A stretch of DNA of 64,000 bases from a virus: IMG/VR virus record IMGVR_UViG_3300020084_000003, positions 62,001 through 126,000 of that record, one strand, 5' to 3'. The notes beneath the pieces are model-generated. The model was not told where the DNA came from, ran no database searches, and saw only the letters and a program-made list of their open reading frames with translations. The position numbers were made by a program, and so were the translations under genes. Positions 53,866 through 64,000 of this stretch are shown here, in pieces. Numbering within the stretch: position 1 is the stretch's first letter; every line of letters begins with the position of its first letter.

Positions 53866-54603
53866 TTATTCTCCATGTTGAAAAATTCCCTCATATACCC
53901 ATCCCATAATGGATTTTTTTCTTTGATTAGGACTTATACAATCCCCAACTCTTCCGCGCTTACATTTTAAAAAAGATTGTATTTCTTTTCTAGTCATGTA
54001 AACAGAACCTTTTTCTGGATGGGTCCATATATATTTGGTAAAATCTTCACCACTTCTAAAGTTAGGTTCAAATTCATTTCCAACTTCGCCTGCAAAATAC
54101 CACCCTCTAACAGACTTACAGTGTTTCCTCTTAATTACACAAGAGTTGACATTACATTTATAACCGCCTAAAAACAAAGTCATGCCATATTGGGATTTAT
54201 AAATCTTTTCTTTAGTCTTTTTGTTAATCCACACATATATTTTATCATCGTAACGTGGGTGACTTTCTGCATTTCCTAATCCGATACCTCCCGGTATCTT
54301 ATTCATACATAATTTATCTTTAAACCACAAATCACCAATTATTATATTTTCATTCAATAAATTGCTACTATGGCTATCGTTCATCATTATTATTTCTTTT
54401 ACAAACTCAGGATTATTAGTAAAATGTCTTCTTCTAGCTACAGGAGGTTTATGCTTAAAACCATTTATAACCATCGCAAGGTTCCTTATCCAATCACCAC
54501 TACCAAAATAATCATGGTCTTCGGGATTCTCGAAACAGGAACTTCTACCTATATAATATTCGCCAGTATTTGTATTAGTTATTTTATATAGGTAAAAATT
54601 CAT
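53866..54603 (-). CDS. Free-standing GIY-YIG-like homing endonuclease
   Basis: A 245-aa protein whose first 45 residues (YLYKITNTNTGEYYIGRSSC; DHDYFGSGDWIRN) form a GIY-YIG-type nuclease start with YK-I and YIG positions. Two later segments (KIYVWINKKTKEKIYKSQYG and IWTHPEKGSVYMTRKEIQSF, ending in GW) resemble NUMOD-type DNA-binding repeats. Such genes are mobile in T4-like phages (Seg/Mob enzymes) and insert between essential genes. No intron is seen around it, so it is free-standing. RBS AAAGGA. Confidence 0.75.
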   Translation of the reverse strand: MNFYLYKITNTNTGEYYIGRSSCFENPEDHDYFGSGDWIRNLAMVINGFKHKPPVARRRHFTNNPEFVKEIIMMNDSHSSNLLNENIIIGDLWFKDKLCMNKIPGGIGLGNAESHPRYDDKIYVWINKKTKEKIYKSQYGMTLFLGGYKCNVNSCVIKRKHCKSVRGWYFAGEVGNEFEPNFRSGEDFTKYIWTHPEKGSVYMTRKEIQSFLKCKRGRVGDCISPNQRKKSIMGWVYEGIFQHGE

Positions 54604-56007: not shown

Positions 56008-56167
56008 TTAGATACTTTTCACCTTCCGCTGTCACGACCCATTCCCCATTATCATGAAAAATATAACCGTTACCTTTAAGACGGTTGATGTATGGAGTAT
56101 GTTTGTTTGACACCATTATATTTTTGTCTTTTAATTTTTGCAACAACTCTAAGCTCTTGTTATCCAT
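55970..56167 (-). CDS. Small winged-helix-like protein
   Basis: A 65-aa protein. The layout ELLQKLKDKNIMVSNKHTPY, INRLKGNGYIFHDNGEWVVT and AEGEKYLND follows a winged-helix: helices, recognition helix, then a wing of G-Y-I...W-x-[LV]-T and T-x-x-G-x-x-Y-L. It could be a small DNA-binding regulator. The start overlaps the stop of the gene upstream. Assignment is by pattern only. Confidence 0.6.
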   Translation of the reverse strand: MDNKSLELLQKLKDKNIMVSNKHTPYINRLKGNGYIFHDNGEWVVTAEGEKYLNDKQDYFKDTTE

Positions 56168-56513
56168 CTAAAGATATTCCTTCAACGTTGTAAGACATGA
56201 TATCATCATAATCAAATATTCTGTGATTTATACCATTCACTTCTACATCCAAGAGCAGATGGCTTATAATTATGACGTTTTCAAACATGAAAATATCTTT
56301 CAATTCTTGGTATTCTTTGGCTTTAACTACTACCAAACAATCTTTCAGAACGCAGCTTTTAAATTGTATCTTCTTATCTTTGATGTTTCCGAAGTCGAGT
56401 ATTCCATCCATATTTCTATTTTTAATTACGAAATCATTATTAAATTTATTAGTATGTATTAAATATCTATCTGTGCAAAAAACATCTCTTGTTATAAAAA
56501 TGTTATCTTCCAT
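56160..56513 (-). CDS. Cys-motif family protein, - strand relative of the right-end array
   Basis: A 117-aa protein. ATG 56513 overlaps the methyltransferase stop by 11 bp and is preferred to a start 23 codons upstream inside that gene. Its segment NDFVIKNRNMDGILDF followed by KKIQFKSCVLKDC matches the array member at 62367 (KEVVIKNRNLVSGVIF, then MIYQDCIYY) and the one at 59812 (KKIVIENRY, then VEYKDCV). It thus seems to belong to the same unrecognised family, displaced to the other strand, with an added C-terminal part. Function unknown. Confidence 0.6.
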   Translation of the reverse strand: MEDNIFITRDVFCTDRYLIHTNKFNNDFVIKNRNMDGILDFGNIKDKKIQFKSCVLKDCLVVVKAKEYQELKDIFMFENVIIISHLLLDVEVNGINHRIFDYDDIMSYNVEGISLDG

Positions 56514-57234: not shown

Positions 57235-57262
57235 ATTATATCACAGGTTGTATTTTTGTCAA
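57235..57262 (-). promoter_or_regulatory. Sigma70 promoter, leftward (methyltransferase unit)
   Basis: On the - strand TTGACA (57257-57262), 16-bp spacer, TATAAT (57235-57240). Both hexamers are perfect consensus. Confidence 0.82.
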
Positions 57263-57277
57263 GTCCCTAAATAAACC

Positions 57278-57305
57278 TTGACATATTGTCGCAGTGTGAT
57301 AATAT
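57278..57305 (+). promoter_or_regulatory. Sigma70 promoter, rightward (pnuC-nadR unit)
   Basis: TTGACA (57278-57283), 16-bp spacer, TAATAT (57300-57305). The -35 faces the leftward -35 as an inverted repeat (TGTCAAG...CTTGACA), giving a compact divergent promoter. GANTC sites follow directly. Confidence 0.75.
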
Positions 57306-57341: not shown

Positions 57342-57995
57342 ATGACTATAAAGAAAGACGATTTTCAATTAAATATTATGCTAATTTGCGTAGGTTTTAT
57401 TCTTACGGTTTTAACTCATTATATTTGTGTCATGTTGGGAGTTCAACTACCAGACATTAATATGCTTGAGTTTGTTGCTGTTGCTACTAGCTATACATGC
57501 ACTATCATGTTCGCTATGCAGAAGAGAGCAGCATACTTTTACGGAATTATCAGCACGTTTTTTCTGTGCTGGTTCTTTGCAACACAAGGAATTTTCGCGT
57601 TAGCAATTTTTAACGGTGTTCTAGTTATCAGTTTAATTTACGGATACTGGCGTTGGGGTCCAGATGGACGACCGATTCCAGTTACAAATATCAAAGGTTT
57701 CAAATCATTTGCCGGTTACGGAATGTTTACAGTTATTATCGCAGGTTTATTCCTTCTGCTTGTGGGCGCTTCTTCCAAGATCGACATTTTTCTGGCATCG
57801 GCTTCCGCAACCGCGCAGCTTATGCTAGACAATAAAAAGCTGGAAAACTGGCTTGTATGGATGGTCATTAACGTGTTCTCTATCGTTTTCTTCATTCAAA
57901 GCGGCTTCTGGCTATTGGCAATTCAATTTATGCTATTCTTGCTGAACGCTATTTTCGCGTATTTCTCTTGGAGAAAGGGTCTAGTAAATGTCTAA
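57342..57995 (+). CDS. pnuC: Nicotinamide riboside transporter PnuC
   Basis: A 217-aa polytopic membrane protein with seven likely membrane segments. PnuC motifs include the QKRAAYFYGIISTFFLCWFF region, an IYGYWRWGPDG segment, and SASATAQLMLDNKKLENWLV, which carries the substrate-site pattern with W-x-x-W. PnuC imports nicotinamide riboside by facilitated diffusion, trapped by phosphorylation through NadR, encoded next. The gene has a strong RBS (AAGGAG) and overlaps nadR by 8 bp. Known in phages such as KVP40 with NAD-salvage genes. Confidence 0.92.
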   Translation: MTIKKDDFQLNIMLICVGFILTVLTHYICVMLGVQLPDINMLEFVAVATSYTCTIMFAMQKRAAYFYGIISTFFLCWFFATQGIFALAIFNGVLVISLIYGYWRWGPDGRPIPVTNIKGFKSFAGYGMFTVIIAGLFLLLVGASSKIDIFLASASATAQLMLDNKKLENWLVWMVINVFSIVFFIQSGFWLLAIQFMLFLLNAIFAYFSWRKGLVNV

Positions 57996-59049
57996 AGATG
58001 AAAAAATTCATGGCCTAATTCTCGGAACGTTCATGCCCTTTCATAAGGGGCATGAACTACTAATCAACTTCGGCAAAGAATATACTGAACAATTTGGGCG
58101 TGGTCGCCTTCTGGTAATTCTTTCATCTCGCAGCAATGAACCCATTTCAGGTAATATGCGTCTGGATGCAATCAGAAAGACTTTTGGAAACGATGTGTCG
58201 ATTTTTCATCATATTGACGATGATGCTCCACAAAATCCAAAAGACAAAGATGACGTTAAATTCTGGGAATACTGGAAGAAAGTTATCACCAAAGCTGCCA
58301 TTCAAAGTAATTTAAATCCATACGCAATAAAGTATGTATTTTCATCTGAAAACTATGGTGACAAAGTAGCAGAAATTATTGATGCAACTCATGTCAAATT
58401 TGACCAAGCTAGAACGGCTGTCCACGTAAGCGGAACGCAAATCAGAAACAACCCTTTGTCAAATTACCAACACATGAACGCGCACATGATTACAAATCTT
58501 CGTCGCAGGTATGTTTTGTTTGGAGCCGAATCGGTTGGCAAGACTACTTCTCTAAAATATCTAGGCAATAGTCACTACGGGTCACATACCCTACCTGAAT
58601 ATGCCAGACCGTTTTTAGAAGAATTGGAAGACAAGTCTCCGTCCGAAAAGAACATGTGCAGTATCTTCATGGCGCAGCATTCTATGGAAATTGCCGCAAT
58701 GAAACAAGTCGGCGGTTCTCTACTGACGTTTATGGATACTGATATCATGTCCACTTTTGGATATGCAAGGCTGGTAAAGATGAAAACAAATCAGTTTGAA
58801 CATTTGGTTCCAATTGATTTTAGAAGAACGTATTTCGTTCTGTCACAAGATGAGGTTCCTTTTGAAAAGGACATTCTCAGATATGGTGGCGATGTAAGAG
58901 AAACCAAGGATAGTTTTTGGATCAATCTGCTAGAAGAATTTAATCTAAGATACTTTGTTGTCAAAGGCGATTTCAGTAGCAGGATGGACCAAATTAACGC
59001 TATAATAGCAAAAGATTTCAAGAAGGACTTTCACTTTAACAGAGAGTAG
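57988..59049 (+). CDS. nadR: NadR-like bifunctional NMN adenylyltransferase / nicotinamide riboside kinase
   Basis: A 353-aa protein. The N-terminal nucleotidyltransferase has GTFMPFHKGH (residues 13-22) and the SGTQIR motif (148-153), as in NMN adenylyltransferases. The C-terminal kinase has P-loop GAESVGKTT (179-187) and EYARPFLEE (204-212), diagnostic of the NadR riboside-kinase domain. There is no N-terminal DNA-binding helix-turn-helix as in enteric NadR, so it is purely enzymatic. With PnuC it converts imported nicotinamide riboside to NMN and then NAD. Confidence 0.93.
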   Translation: MSKDEKIHGLILGTFMPFHKGHELLINFGKEYTEQFGRGRLLVILSSRSNEPISGNMRLDAIRKTFGNDVSIFHHIDDDAPQNPKDKDDVKFWEYWKKVITKAAIQSNLNPYAIKYVFSSENYGDKVAEIIDATHVKFDQARTAVHVSGTQIRNNPLSNYQHMNAHMITNLRRRYVLFGAESVGKTTSLKYLGNSHYGSHTLPEYARPFLEELEDKSPSEKNMCSIFMAQHSMEIAAMKQVGGSLLTFMDTDIMSTFGYARLVKMKTNQFEHLVPIDFRRTYFVLSQDEVPFEKDILRYGGDVRETKDSFWINLLEEFNLRYFVVKGDFSSRMDQINAIIAKDFKKDFHFNRE

Positions 59050-59058
59050 GAAAATCTT

Positions 59059-59409
59059 ATGAAACAAGATTTCTTGATACACAAACTAGATATCACTATA
59101 AAAGTGGTCACTGATAATATGCTGGAAGTATCGTGGTATGGTTTCAACACCCGCCACGATATTGACGGTATGGTATTGGTTCAGACAGATGATGACCACA
59201 ATGATATATTCATGACAATAGAACATGATATGCATCCAATGGAAATTGGAGACAATACATCTGTCAACGTTTATCTGAAAAATCCAAATAAACGCAAAAG
59301 CGTATCCAAAGATGCGTGTCCTATGCTTAAAAAACTAGTAAACGAAATACAATTCAGGACACGCAAGCTTCATTTTTCAGGACTCGTCACGTCCGAAGTA
59401 GATATGTAG
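59059..59409 (+). CDS. Hypothetical protein
   Basis: A 116-aa protein with no recognised family, 9 bp after nadR and in the same unit (RBS TAGGAAA). Beta-rich N-terminal part (FLIHKLDITIKVVTDNMLEV; DDHNDIFMTIEHDMHPMEIG), basic C-terminal part. Its 3' end overlaps the end of the convergent membrane-protein gene by 33 bp, with no room for a terminator between them. Confidence 0.7.
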   Translation: MKQDFLIHKLDITIKVVTDNMLEVSWYGFNTRHDIDGMVLVQTDDDHNDIFMTIEHDMHPMEIGDNTSVNVYLKNPNKRKSVSKDACPMLKKLVNEIQFRTRKLHFSGLVTSEVDM

Positions 59410-59811: not shown

Positions 59812-60132
59812 ATGTCTAGGGTAATCAAACCAGAAATACACGCTATAGATTATCTGGAAGAAATTGTATCATACACAAAATATTTTTTAAATGCCGATTG
59901 CGCTGAAACTAAAAGCGATAGCTTTATCTATATAATGCATAGATGGGAAAATGCTGTAAGTGTTTTTTCAAAAAATCAAAAAATTGTAAATTATGATGTG
60001 AAAAAAATTGTAATAGAAAACAGGTATATAGGATTCCGAATAAATCATATCGCAGTTAATCATGAGAAAACGCATAACATACAAGTAGAATATAAAGATT
60101 GTGTGAATTTAATAACAGGAGAGATATTGTGA
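59812..60132 (+). CDS. Cys-motif array protein 1
   Basis: A 106-aa protein, first in the right-end array. ATG 59812 has AAGGAG and is preferred to a start 12 codons upstream. Segment KKIVIENRYIGFRINH, then IQVEYKDCVNL near the C-terminus, defines the family pattern: a hydrophobic strand ending in N-R, then about 20-30 residues later [YF]-x-[DNG]-C-[VI]. Function unknown. Its stop overlaps the GTG start of the next gene. Confidence 0.7.
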   Translation: MSRVIKPEIHAIDYLEEIVSYTKYFLNADCAETKSDSFIYIMHRWENAVSVFSKNQKIVNYDVKKIVIENRYIGFRINHIAVNHEKTHNIQVEYKDCVNLITGEIL

Positions 60133-60497
60133 GTATTATTTTGGCTTTATTTCTTTTTAGCGGCATTGAGTCAAATGCAGATTTAAAAGAATACACCTAT
60201 GATCTAGATGGTGGTATCTGCACTCATGATGTGTCTGCCAGTTTTAACCCTCAAACAATTGAAATAAATGGGGGAGGAATTTATATGGGTAATGGCGGTA
60301 ATGTTAGATTTAGCGTCACCTTGGGTAATGGATTGATTATATACGGTGTGAGTCAATTTGGTTCAAATCCTAACTATGTCTACTATTATACCCTGAACCC
60401 AGAGACAGGAGATATTGGGGCATTTCAAACAAATAACCCAGAGGAACTTAAAGAAGAAGGAGCGGTTGATACGATGCAGTTGAAACCATGTAGATAA
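60129..60497 (+). CDS. Small exported protein (signal peptide), GTG start
   Basis: A 122-aa protein. GTG at 60129 overlaps the previous stop (GTGA) and follows AGGAGA, so it is chosen over a start 10 codons upstream. The start SIILALFLFSGIESNADLKE looks like a short signal peptide with possible cleavage after SNA. The mature part is Gly/Asn-rich and beta-like (INGGGIYMGNGGNVRFSVTL), with Cys near each end (GICTHD and KPCR) that could form a disulphide. No family recognised. It would act in the periplasm. Confidence 0.65.
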   Translation: MSIILALFLFSGIESNADLKEYTYDLDGGICTHDVSASFNPQTIEINGGGIYMGNGGNVRFSVTLGNGLIIYGVSQFGSNPNYVYYYTLNPETGDIGAFQTNNPEELKEEGAVDTMQLKPCR

Positions 60498-60498
60498 T

Positions 60499-60861
60499 AT
60501 GAAACTTGAATACCAAAAAAACTTCGATGAGAAAATATTTAATAACTATGTAAAACAATCAATATTTGGAAATAATGAATTTTCCGAATTACATTTTAAT
60601 GATTGTAAGATAACTGTTTTGAATAGGTTATCATACGAAAAAACTATACGTTATGTAAACAAAAAAAATCTTGAGAATACACCTGTATTGACCCTTAGAA
60701 ATGTAGATGTATCAAGTGGGCCTGTAATATATGTGAGATATTATGATAGCAGTGAAAGTTATATAAAATCATCATATCCTTGTTACTATCACTCTATAAT
60801 AAAACCAGTAACCAGAAGGCACTCAGCAATAGCCTGTATAATGGAAGGAAATGCAACATGA
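60499..60861 (+). CDS. Cys-motif array protein 2
   Basis: A 120-aa protein starting one base after the previous stop. It has SELHFNDCKITVLN at residues about 28-41 (F-x-[DN]-C form) and later LTLRNVDVSSGPVIYVRYYD, which echoes the N-R...G-V-I-F block of other members, followed by SSYPCYYHS. Order of the blocks differs from the other members, so membership is probable, not sure. Stop overlaps the next start as ATGA. Confidence 0.55.
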   Translation: MKLEYQKNFDEKIFNNYVKQSIFGNNEFSELHFNDCKITVLNRLSYEKTIRYVNKKNLENTPVLTLRNVDVSSGPVIYVRYYDSSESYIKSSYPCYYHSIIKPVTRRHSAIACIMEGNAT

Positions 60862-61088
60862 CTAAACAACCAAGAGTATATAGAGGAATTGGATTTTTTG
60901 GAGTTCTGACAATCGTATTGATTGTTTTGAAATTGGCCGAAGTCATCAGCATTTCATGGTGGTGGATTGTGGCTACATTTTTTGCACCTTGGATCATCGG
61001 ATTTAGCATAATCGCATTCGGATTTATGGCTGTAGGACTTATATTTCTCGGTGCTTTGATTTTGGATTTGATTACAGGTAAACGGTGA
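60858..61088 (+). CDS. Small transmembrane protein
   Basis: A 76-aa protein with two or three membrane segments: GFFGVLTIVLIVLKLAEVI (about 13-31), SWWWIVATFFAPWIIGFSII (about 33-52) and FMAVGLIFLGALILDLI. The sWWW-containing short two-helix form is common in phages (sometimes called fragile-X-F-like transmembrane proteins). ATG 60858 overlaps the previous stop (ATGA) and has GGAAGG upstream. Function unknown. Confidence 0.7.
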   Translation: MTKQPRVYRGIGFFGVLTIVLIVLKLAEVISISWWWIVATFFAPWIIGFSIIAFGFMAVGLIFLGALILDLITGKR

Positions 61089-61089
61089 C

Positions 61090-61578
61090 ATGATACTGGA
61101 TAGATCAGAACTAGGGAAGCAGATATTAGAAATGAGCTATACTGGTGAATGCTCATTTAGAAATAACATTGGCTTTTATAAAACCGATAATGGTAGTCTA
61201 GATTTTTATGAAGCTTATGGATTGTCTGATAGTATGCTAGATGATTTGGGTTTTGGGTGTGAAGATTATTTAAATTTCAAAAGCGATGAGTTTGTCCCAA
61301 GAGAAAAAGCAGAAAATTCATATGAAAGTAAAGCGCCTCTGTATAGATATGTAAACATACGTTTCAAGAAGCCATTCTATATTAGAGTGAAAAGAAGTAG
61401 ATTCACACATACATCAACAAACGGAAATATAAGCAGCTTCAATTTGCTAGATAAGTTTGAATTGTTTATCAGAGTTAGATTTGAGGGATGCCAATTTGAT
61501 GAATTGCCTGAAAAATACACGTTCTGTAGCTATAAAAATTGTTATGCGGATGATAAACTGATAGGAGATTTACAATGA
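61090..61578 (+). CDS. Cys-motif array protein 3
   Basis: A 162-aa protein one base after the previous stop. The C-terminal third has RYVNIRFKKPFYIRVKRS, then LFIRVRFEGCQFDELPEKYT and FCSYKNCYADDK: the two F/Y-x-[GN]-C motifs about 18 residues apart that define the family. The N-terminal 100 residues are acidic and unlike other members. Its stop overlaps the next start (ATGA-type). Confidence 0.65.
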   Translation: MILDRSELGKQILEMSYTGECSFRNNIGFYKTDNGSLDFYEAYGLSDSMLDDLGFGCEDYLNFKSDEFVPREKAENSYESKAPLYRYVNIRFKKPFYIRVKRSRFTHTSTNGNISSFNLLDKFELFIRVRFEGCQFDELPEKYTFCSYKNCYADDKLIGDLQ

Positions 61579-61793
61579 ATATTTTATACCTGACAGATAG
61601 AGAGGCTACTAGTTACGGTCAACCTTCCGTTGGCAGTATCGCCTATATCAGCATTGATCTAATAAAGATGGCAATCAAGGAACATGCTGACTGGATTTTG
61701 GACTATGACGAAGACATTCATACAAAGGAGGAATTTCATTTTCATTCCAGTGCATTCGTTGCGCTGACGAACCTTTTGAAAGAAGTCAAGTAA
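61575..61793 (+). CDS. Hypothetical protein within the array
   Basis: A 72-aa protein with no Cys motif and no family I recognise. It begins NILYLTDREATSYGQPSVGS and has a His/Phe-rich segment (KEEFHFHSSAF). RBS TAGGAGA is well placed and both ends overlap neighbours, so it is expressed with the array. Not an obvious member of the family. Confidence 0.65.
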   Translation: MNILYLTDREATSYGQPSVGSIAYISIDLIKMAIKEHADWILDYDEDIHTKEEFHFHSSAFVALTNLLKEVK

Positions 61794-62248
61794 TGTCAGG
61801 CAAAGAAATCTATAGTTATTTCATAAGCAAGTTTAAAGTGCCATATGGCACTGTAACTGAAAAACACACATACGAAGATATTGGACAAGTTACAACAAAA
61901 GTATCAATTAATGATGTAATTAAAATTATGGCAGTCGATATAGATGTTCGTGTGAAAGACGTTAACGAAAGTATTAATATACCGTTTCCTAATGGGTTGC
62001 GTAAGATTAAACTGGTTCCTAGAAAAAGTATCAGTATTGACAATATGTTAATTTCTTCAACTTTCCCTATAAACTTTTTCAATATGTATATTGAATATAC
62101 ACCATTTTTTATAGTGAACTTGATTGATGCTGAAAGAAGTATTATTAAAAGTCATTATATAAGATGCTACTTTTCTAATTGCGTAGTGCAGGGGAAAAAT
62201 TTGGAGATGCTGGAATATGACAACTGCGAAATCATCACTGCCACTTGA
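61793..62248 (+). CDS. Cys-motif array protein 4
   Basis: A 151-aa member with all family blocks. The helix-like start (GKEIYSYFISKF) is followed by IDVRVKDVNESINIPFPNGL (a strand then I-x-I-P-x-P-x-G), a middle strand pair, and the ending HYIRCYFSNCVVQGKNLEML then EYDNCEIITAT. The two Cys motifs are 17 residues apart. Its 3' end overlaps the 44-codon start of the split member by 32 bp. Function unknown. Confidence 0.7.
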   Translation: MSGKEIYSYFISKFKVPYGTVTEKHTYEDIGQVTTKVSINDVIKIMAVDIDVRVKDVNESINIPFPNGLRKIKLVPRKSISIDNMLISSTFPINFFNMYIEYTPFFIVNLIDAERSIIKSHYIRCYFSNCVVQGKNLEMLEYDNCEIITAT

Positions 62249-62717
62249 CATTACCCCTCTGTATGATAAAGTGTCATCAGGCATGGACCCATACCAAATT
62301 GGTGAAGGCTACAGAGAAACCATCTTTCACAAAAAAGGTGGTTTGTTTTAACTTGAAAAAGAAATAGTGTTGTCTTGTGTAAGATGGCACATTGGAAAAA
62401 TGTTTATAATAAGCATCGAAATAAATGGGTTTGTAAAAGAAAAGAACATATCTATACCTATGCCAGATGGCATGGAGCCTATTGTATTTGAGAACAAAGA
62501 TTACAAAAATATCTATACACCTGAAAACTTTGTGTATGACAAGGAAGTGGTCATTAAAAATAGAAACCTTGTGAGTGGAGTGATTTTTCGATTCTCTAGA
62601 AACTCCGGTTCTGAAATAATAACTGCGCCAATGATATATCAAGATTGCATTTATTATACAAGTCACAAATATATACCTTTAACAATTAATAGTATACAGG
62701 AAAACGACAATGGATAG
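62217..62717 (+). pseudogene. Cys-motif array member 5, split by an in-frame TAA
   Basis: From ATG 62217 a 44-codon frame (TAKSSLPLDITPLYDKVSSG then MDPYQIGEGYRETIF) ends at TAA 62349-62351. The same frame then stays open to 62717 and encodes the family blocks: IISIEINGFVKEKNISIPMP-DG, KEVVIKNRNLVSGVIF and MIYQDCIYY. The 44-aa part resembles the start of member 8 (LVDIYTRQMQGLDTSPYRI). The two halves therefore look like one roughly 165-aa gene broken by a single stop. The second half may restart at GTG 62367 or ATG 62400. Confidence 0.6.
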
Positions 62718-63129
62718 TATTGAAGAAGCTATTAAAGAAATATATAAAACGACCTCTTTGAAGTTTGAATATAATGGCATCCATTGTGCAATTCACAAGA
62801 AGCTGTTTAATGCGGAACTTTATGTGAATTTGGATCAGGCCGAAGATACAGAAAAGAGAATAGGCAAATATATTGGCTTTGATTTTGAATACGATATAAA
62901 CAAGCATTTTCTTCCCAATACGAACATACAAATTCAAAAGAAACCAAATTTTGGCCTTGTTTTTGTCAACGAAGTAAAGCCCATTGAAATAAACCTTACG
63001 CTTGTGAGAAAGGAAGTAGAATATAAAACGAACACGTTATATAAAGGATGTGTTTTCAAAAGATCACAATGTTTAAATCCTGCGCGGTCTATTTTTGATA
63101 ACTGTGAAGGGGTAGATGGTTTAGAATAA
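62710..63129 (+). CDS. Cys-motif array protein 6
   Basis: A 139-aa member. Helical start (SIEEAIKEIYKTTSLKFEYN), strand NAELYVNLDQAE, then YIGFDFEYDINKHFLPNTNI and the endings EVEYKTNTLYKGCVFKRSQC and SIFDNCEGVDGLE: both Cys motifs, about 18 residues apart. The start overlaps the end of the split gene and has AGGAAAA upstream. Function unknown. Confidence 0.7.
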   Translation: MDSIEEAIKEIYKTTSLKFEYNGIHCAIHKKLFNAELYVNLDQAEDTEKRIGKYIGFDFEYDINKHFLPNTNIQIQKKPNFGLVFVNEVKPIEINLTLVRKEVEYKTNTLYKGCVFKRSQCLNPARSIFDNCEGVDGLE

Positions 63130-63149
63130 CAACTCAATAGGATATAGAT

Positions 63150-63587
63150 ATGGAAAACGAGGTTTCAAAACTTATAGGTCGTTTCTTGGAAATTTCAAAA
63201 AAGAAGAACGATGATTATGAAGAATATTCTACCAGTGTCAAATCAGACGTTGAACCCCAGATGGACATTGCTTTAGAATTTTGGTATGATTTTTGCGAAA
63301 TTGTCGTAACGATATATTGTCATGCGTCAGTTTATGATGCTGAAAAATTCATAGTAGAATTGCCTAGTGGTGAAACGCTGTATTACAACCATTACTCTAC
63401 AAATACGGTCAACATTAGAAACATTGACACGAACGGATATGATATTCTCTTCTTTGTTGTATTTGAAAAAGAATACGAAGAAAAACAAGCAAAAGAAAGG
63501 TTAAATATCAAATATAAAAACTGCGTTGTAAACAATTATATGCTCTCTGATAATTCAGTAGAAGGATGTGAATTTTATGAAAGGTGA
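63150..63587 (+). CDS. Cys-motif array protein 7
   Basis: A 145-aa member. Acidic helical start, then the strand FCEIVVTIYCHASVYDAEKF and IVELPSG (the I-x-[IL]-P-x-G block), a middle TVNIRNIDTNGYDILFFVVF, and the ending RLNIKYKNCVVNNYMLSDNS, VEGCEFYER with both Cys motifs. RBS AGGA lies 9 bp before ATG. Overlaps the next gene by 11 bp. Confidence 0.7.
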   Translation: MENEVSKLIGRFLEISKKKNDDYEEYSTSVKSDVEPQMDIALEFWYDFCEIVVTIYCHASVYDAEKFIVELPSGETLYYNHYSTNTVNIRNIDTNGYDILFFVVFEKEYEEKQAKERLNIKYKNCVVNNYMLSDNSVEGCEFYER

Positions 63588-63978
63588 TAGTAAAAAACTG
63601 GTGGATATTTACACTAGGCAAATGCAAGGGCTTGATACATCTCCATATAGGATATTGGTTAATCAATCGAAATATTTGGACGTTTATTCTATGGGGGTCG
63701 AAGATATCACTATGGAAGAGTTTGGAATTTCCAATATAGACCATGAACAGTTTAATCTGAAAACCATAAAAGACTCATTTCAAAAACCTGAATTTCATAG
63801 CTTTGAAGTTGATAACTTGATTCTCATATACCCATTAAGATTGACATTTTTTGTGGGAACTATAGAATACCATTTGAATGTAAAACATAATAACTGCATA
63901 TTCAAATTAGGCCAGAAGAAATACTATGAAACTATTAACGAGCATAATTGTGTATGGTGTTTAGATGATGTTGGGTAA
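63577..63978 (+). CDS. Cys-motif array protein 8
   Basis: A 133-aa member. ATG 63577 follows GAAGGA and is preferred to GTG three codons upstream. The start KGDSKKLVDIYTRQMQGLDT is helical; strands DNLILIYPLRLTFFVG and TIEYHLNVKHNNCIFKLG lead to the first Cys motif, and NEHNCVWCLDDVG ends the protein with the second. Function unknown. Confidence 0.7.
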   Translation: MKGDSKKLVDIYTRQMQGLDTSPYRILVNQSKYLDVYSMGVEDITMEEFGISNIDHEQFNLKTIKDSFQKPEFHSFEVDNLILIYPLRLTFFVGTIEYHLNVKHNNCIFKLGQKKYYETINEHNCVWCLDDVG

Positions 63979-64000
63979 AACTGAAAACAAGCTACTTGAA
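63968..64000 (+). CDS. Start of next array gene (cut by window)
   Basis: ATG at 63968 (or 63965, same frame) overlaps the preceding stop codon and opens MLGKTENKLLE before the window ends. The Lys/Leu-rich start resembles members 7 and 8, so the array probably continues to the right. Confidence 0.5.
   Translation, partial: MLGKTENKLLE

What the first reader, a model, noticed from the sequence alone, without database searches (positions are those of the whole stretch)
59812..64000. Tandem array of diverged paralogs with a paired Cys motif, family not recognised
At least six, probably eight, small genes here share one plan: helical start, a strand ending in a P-x-[PS]-x-G-like turn, an N-R-containing strand, then [YF]-x-[DNG]-C-[VI] and, about 15-18 residues on, a second [FY/E]-x-[DNG]-[NG]-C. 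Overall sequence identity is very low, so repeats are not visible at DNA level. The genes overlap by a few bases, are interspersed with an exported and a membrane protein, and run off the window. Low identity, fixed fold and clustering suggest fast diversification, as in anti-host or anti-defence factor sets.
Basis: partly seen in the sequence, partly recalled or inferred. Interest (0 to 1): 0.85.

Follow-up and report, generated by a model that had tools for sequence, protein, structure and literature searches.

The report
Phage array of diverged cysteine-motif paralogs
A large T4-like phage carries a run of about ten small, very different-looking genes that end in the same paired-cysteine signature, so they probably descend from repeated duplication of one gene; what they do is unknown, and anti-host action is plausible but untested.

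Summary
The window is part of a 284,776-b virus record (T4-like myovirus, jumbo size). Ten same-strand genes between 59812 and 65226 end in a C-terminal signature: [YFH]-x-[NDGS]-C about 20-28 residues from the end and, in eight, a second [NDG]-C 4-12 residues from the end. That paired signature is in 8 of 14 operon genes, 0 of 373 other predicted proteins of the phage, and at most 2 of 14 in 20,000 composition shuffles. Three members lie (almost) wholly outside the window; all three carry it, and a profile of the seven in-window genes ranks two of them first and second in the proteome. Two (63968, 64390) are unmistakable paralogs (6e-17). The rest are joined mainly by the Cys block: masking it drops most to noise, and both AlphaFold models failed (mean pLDDT 49 and 36), so one shared fold is likely but unproven. 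No relative was found in Pfam, PHROGs, NCBIfam, PADLOC, PDB, phage records or IMG/VR. The array has no late (TATAAATA) promoter and members show no signal peptide, which fits non-virion accessory proteins. Anti-defence is possible but has no direct evidence. One member (62217/62367) is split by an in-frame stop.

The parts
59812..60132 (+). array member 1 (106 aa), EYKDCV near C-terminus, no second Cys
60129..60497 (+). interspersed exported-looking protein (short hydrophobic start), not a member
60499..60861 (+). possible degenerate member (120 aa): N-containing strand LTLRNVDV..PVIYV but no Cys motif in register
   Evidence: read from sequence; not detected by profile
60858..61088 (+). interspersed small membrane protein, PHROG 1374 (2.3e-12), not a member
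61090..61578 (+). array member (162 aa), RFEGCQF and YKNCY
61575..61793 (+). interspersed 72-aa ORF without Cys, not a member
61793..62248 (+). array member (151 aa), YFSNCVV and YDNCEI
62217..62351 (+). 44-aa ORF, probably the N-terminal part of the next member, ended by in-frame TAA at 62349
   Evidence: same frame as 62367
62367..62717 (+). array member (116 aa or less), IYQDCI; probably the C-terminal part of a split gene
62710..63129 (+). array member (139 aa), YKGCVF and FDNCEG
63150..63587 (+). array member (145 aa), YKNCVV and VEGCEF
63577..63978 (+). array member (133 aa), HNNCIF and EHNCVW
63968..64000 (+). start of array member 63968-64393 (141 aa; YTNCVF, KDCIW); two further members follow outside the window at 64390-64794 (YTSCIF, TDCIY) and 64807-65226 (MINCVC, FKNCEI)
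56160..56513 (-). weak outlying candidate (117 aa): VIKNRN then QFKSCVLKDC in mid-protein
57278..57305 (+). sigma70-like promoter TTGACA-N16-TAATAT upstream of pnuC; the nearest strong + strand promoter candidate before the array

Best explanation
The region is an operon-like run of about ten tandem paralogs that arose by repeated duplication and extreme divergence of one small cytosolic protein gene in the accessory region of a T4-like phage. Shown: same strand, end-to-end packing, a conserved C-terminal paired-Cys block in fixed register with the C-terminus, two undoubted paralogs, and one member split by a stop. Inferred: each protein has an N-terminal helix followed by beta strands, the Cys residues pack in the core of two adjacent C-terminal strands, and the rest of the surface has diverged so that each copy binds a different partner, most likely host proteins during takeover or defence evasion.
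For: Paired-Cys signature 8/14 against 0/373, shuffle maximum 2. In leave-one-out profiles of the last 60 residues, each of the nine members tested ranks first among the phage's remaining proteins. A profile of seven in-window members ranks out-of-window 64390 and 63968 first and second in the proteome. 63968 and 64390 match at 6e-17 with 32% identity. Motif search on all operon genes scores 74, against a maximum of 57.5 in 1151 length-matched sets of the phage's own proteins; with one of the close pair dropped it scores 57 against a maximum of 51. A profile finds only these members in the whole record. T4-type late promoters (TATAAATA, 23 against 6.5 expected) precede virion genes but none lies on the + strand between 54,924 and 64,000, and an early-type promoter tract begins 49 b after the last member; in T4-like phages many novel ORFs go with early promoters (PMC1524935).
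Against: With the Cys block masked, only 63968, 64390 and 62710 give support beyond noise, apart from one rank 1 at E 1.4 for 61793. Profile-profile comparison of two subgroups is not significant, although it aligns the Cys in register. Composition-preserving shuffles explain much of the unsupervised motif score once the close pair is reduced. Both AlphaFold models are of low confidence. No evidence bears on binding partners. No promoter was identified directly at the array.
Confidence: 0.45

Rival explanations
1. Paralogous subunits of one hetero-oligomeric assembly: the duplicated genes stay together because their products form one complex, and the Cys strands form the shared interface.
For: Overlapping genes in one operon-like run and a fixed C-terminal block fit a conserved assembly interface with variable outer parts.
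Against: One copy is split by a stop, copies differ in Cys number and length, and related T4-like records show no counterpart.
Confidence: 0.15
2. The cysteines bind a metal ion (zinc-ribbon-like), making the proteins small nucleic-acid or protein-binding regulators.
For: Most members have three or more Cys in the last 30 residues.
Against: The third and fourth Cys are not in a common position, two members have one C-terminal Cys only, and no Pfam zinc family was hit.
Confidence: 0.12
3. Only a sub-cluster (63968, 64390, perhaps 62710 and 63577) is one family; the others are unrelated AT-rich ORFans that share a common beta-strand ending by convergence and composition.
For: Masked and shuffled controls weaken the wider family and hhalign links are not significant.
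Against: The paired-Cys register is absent from all 373 other proteins and nearly so from shuffles with the same composition; unseen neighbours carry it.
Confidence: 0.2
4. The array is decaying, mostly non-functional sequence after gene amplification.
For: In-frame stop in 62217 and a possible Cys-less copy at 60499.
Against: Nine other copies keep long open frames that score far better than the other five frames.
Confidence: 0.06

Closest known systems
Novel-ORF (ORFan) tracts of T4-like phages, coordinately regulated with early genes (PMC1524935)
   Same: Small genes without database relatives, away from the virion genes and without late promoters, in a T4-like genome
   Different: Here about ten genes of one run share one signature, so they look like one expanded family rather than a mixture
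Paralogue families a-c of Bacillus phage 0305phi8-36 (PMC2147016)
   Same: Repeated paralogous domains without outside relatives in a large myovirus
   Different: Those domains are in virion proteins; the present genes have no late promoter and are far from the virion genes
Parallel beta-helix / pentapeptide-repeat proteins
   Same: The pattern hydrophobic-x-hydrophobic-x-N-hydrophobic or N-C-x-F recurs within a member, as in beta-helix turns
   Different: Only two or three irregular occurrences, no Pfam hit, and profile comparison of the two blocks is not significant

Membership tests
Single paralogous family (this array) | Paired Cys in fixed register with the C-terminus | tested here: met
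   8/14 operon genes, 0/373 others, shuffle maximum 2
Single paralogous family (this array) | Significant sequence similarity outside the motif | tested here: inconclusive
   Clear for 63968/64390 (6e-17), 62710 supported with the motif masked; the rest near noise
Single paralogous family (this array) | Common fold | tested here: inconclusive
   AlphaFold mean pLDDT 49.1 and 36.1; models too poor to compare
Anti-defence / anti-host factors | Similarity to a known anti-defence or defence family | tested here: not met
   No Pfam, PHROG, NCBIfam or PADLOC family at a meaningful level
Anti-defence / anti-host factors | Early expression | tested here: inconclusive
   No late promoter in the array; early-type promoters upstream at 57278 and downstream from 65275, none directly at the array
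Anti-defence / anti-host factors | Inhibits a host protein or defence system | not testable with these tools
   Needs expression and plaque assays
Parallel beta-helix / pentapeptide repeat | Regular repeat of short strand turns | tested here: inconclusive
   Pattern seen by eye; block-to-block hhalign P 0.11; no Pfam hit

The most novel reading that the evidence does not exclude
A previously undescribed protein family that a T4-like phage has amplified into a ten-gene tandem set, each copy diverged to bind a different host target: a one-scaffold, many-targets host-takeover or counter-defence kit.
Probability: 0.25. Interest if true: 0.75.

Novelty: new member of a known kind. Interest (0 to 1): 0.4.

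Why it matters
If the genes are one family, they are a natural set of variants on one scaffold in a single genome, a good entry point for finding new host-takeover or anti-defence functions. They also show that family relationships among phage ORFans can be hidden below the reach of ordinary profile searches.

Tried and rejected
Relatives by tblastn in 50,697 phage records, by pattern scans of IMG/VR and of GTDB species genomes: none. Searching 18 related T4-like IMG/VR records and six named phages with the family profile: none; this is weak evidence, because within-array divergence is already at the limit of the profile. Synteny from nadR and the gene at 59377: no informative locus. PHROG 29895 and 33616 as possible bridging families: weak single hits only, and both also ring in control genomes. 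PDB sequence search: nothing meaningful. AlphaFold: low confidence, so no fold search was made. Unsupervised motif test: significant against the phage's other proteins but mostly not against composition-preserving shuffles when the close pair is reduced, so the claim rests on the registered Cys pair rather than on that score. Internal-repeat (beta-helix) reading: not significant.

Full report
What the sequence is. The window is bases 62001-126000 of a 284,776-base virus record. Its major capsid protein is about 60-75% identical to those of T4-like phages and IMG/VR contigs, and the nadR gene before the array most resembles that of rhizobial and agrobacterial large phages, at 34-37% identity. 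No record near it at DNA level exists in the phage collection.

Checking the observation. The genes are present at the stated positions and score best in their own frame by codon usage. The array does not stop at the window end: three more genes follow at 63968-64393, 64390-64794 and 64807-65226, after which a different, less AT-rich tract begins. The C-terminal signature is [YFH]-x-[NDGS]-C, 20-28 residues before the end in most members, and a second [NDG]-C 4-12 residues before the end. The pair of [NDGS]-C in those positions is in 61090, 61793, 62710, 63150, 63577, 63968, 64390 and 64807, in none of 373 other predicted proteins, and in at most 2 of 14 shuffled operon proteins in 20,000 trials. 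A profile of the last 60 residues of the seven in-window members puts 64390 first and 63968 second among all other proteins of the phage; 64807 is not recovered that way and is placed by the Cys pair and by its similarity in plan to 63150.

How strong is the family? 63968 and 64390 are certain paralogs (6e-17; 32% identity). In leave-one-out tests on the last 60 residues each of nine members ranks first. With the motif masked most drop to noise. Curated N-strand blocks without the Cys give moderate support, with most left-out members hitting the expected place but only three ranked first. Unsupervised motif search finds the Cys block when given every gene of the operon, above all 1151 random sets of the phage's other proteins, but composition-preserving shuffles remove most of that margin when the close pair is reduced to one. 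Profile-profile comparison of two disjoint subgroups is not significant, though its only aligned stretch is the Cys block in register. I put the probability that at least eight of the genes are homologous at about 0.75 (judgement, not a computed value).

The split member. The ORF at 62217-62351 and the ORF at 62367-62717 are in one frame, separated by TAA at 62349. The second ORF has IPMPDG followed by VVIKNRN and IYQDC, which matches the plan of 61793 (IPFPNG ... SIDNM ... YFSNC), while the first would supply the missing N-terminal part. This looks like an interrupted copy, but two separate small genes cannot be excluded.

Function. No library recognises any member and no relative was found elsewhere. 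The members have no evident signal peptide or membrane segment (read from sequence), so they are probably cytosolic; a structural disulfide is then less likely than core packing of the Cys. Late T4-type promoters are abundant before virion genes but absent from the + strand of the array. The nearest strong + strand promoter candidate is at 57278, before pnuC, and no terminator-like site separates the nadR genes from the array start, though one lies at the split member, 62317-62344. From 65275 onward there is a tract of about 45 near-identical promoter-like elements. In T4-like phages many novel ORFs are under early promoters (PMC1524935). Together these favour a non-virion, early or middle accessory role; the step to host-protein binding is inference, and the step to anti-defence is speculation.

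Verdict. The interpretation as a diversified family is likely for most members; anti-host function remains a hypothesis.

Noticed in passing
outside the window, G000:127275-163103 (window coordinates 65275-101103): About 45 near-identical promoter-like elements TTGAC(A)-N13-19-(TG)ATATTCT, roughly one every 0.8 kb on both strands (mostly +), starting 49 b after the last array gene; they look like a tandem early-promoter tract with short ORFs between.
   Followed up: partly
window 7000-39000: T4-type late promoter TATAAATA occurs 23 times in the window against 6.5 expected, mostly before virion genes.
   Followed up: yes
window 57235-57305: Divergent strong sigma70-like promoters between a methylase-like gene and pnuC; the minus-strand one matches 12 of 12 consensus bases with an extended -10.
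   Followed up: no
window 57342-59049: pnuC-nadR NAD salvage pair, as in several large alphaproteobacterial phages.
   Followed up: partly
window 53866-54603 and six other genes of the record: Seven-member paralog group that includes a GIY-YIG-like ORF, probably homing endonucleases; a second group of five HNH-like ORFs lies elsewhere in the record (family names read from sequence only; groups).
   Followed up: no
window 62317-62344: Terminator-like hairpin (11 pairs) just before the in-frame TAA that splits the 62217/62367 member.
   Followed up: no
L014:11001-11234 (+) and L014:14841-15071 (-): Two small ORFs sharing DTFNGRGSQHHLKNPK within the promoter tract, a small repeated gene family.
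   Followed up: no
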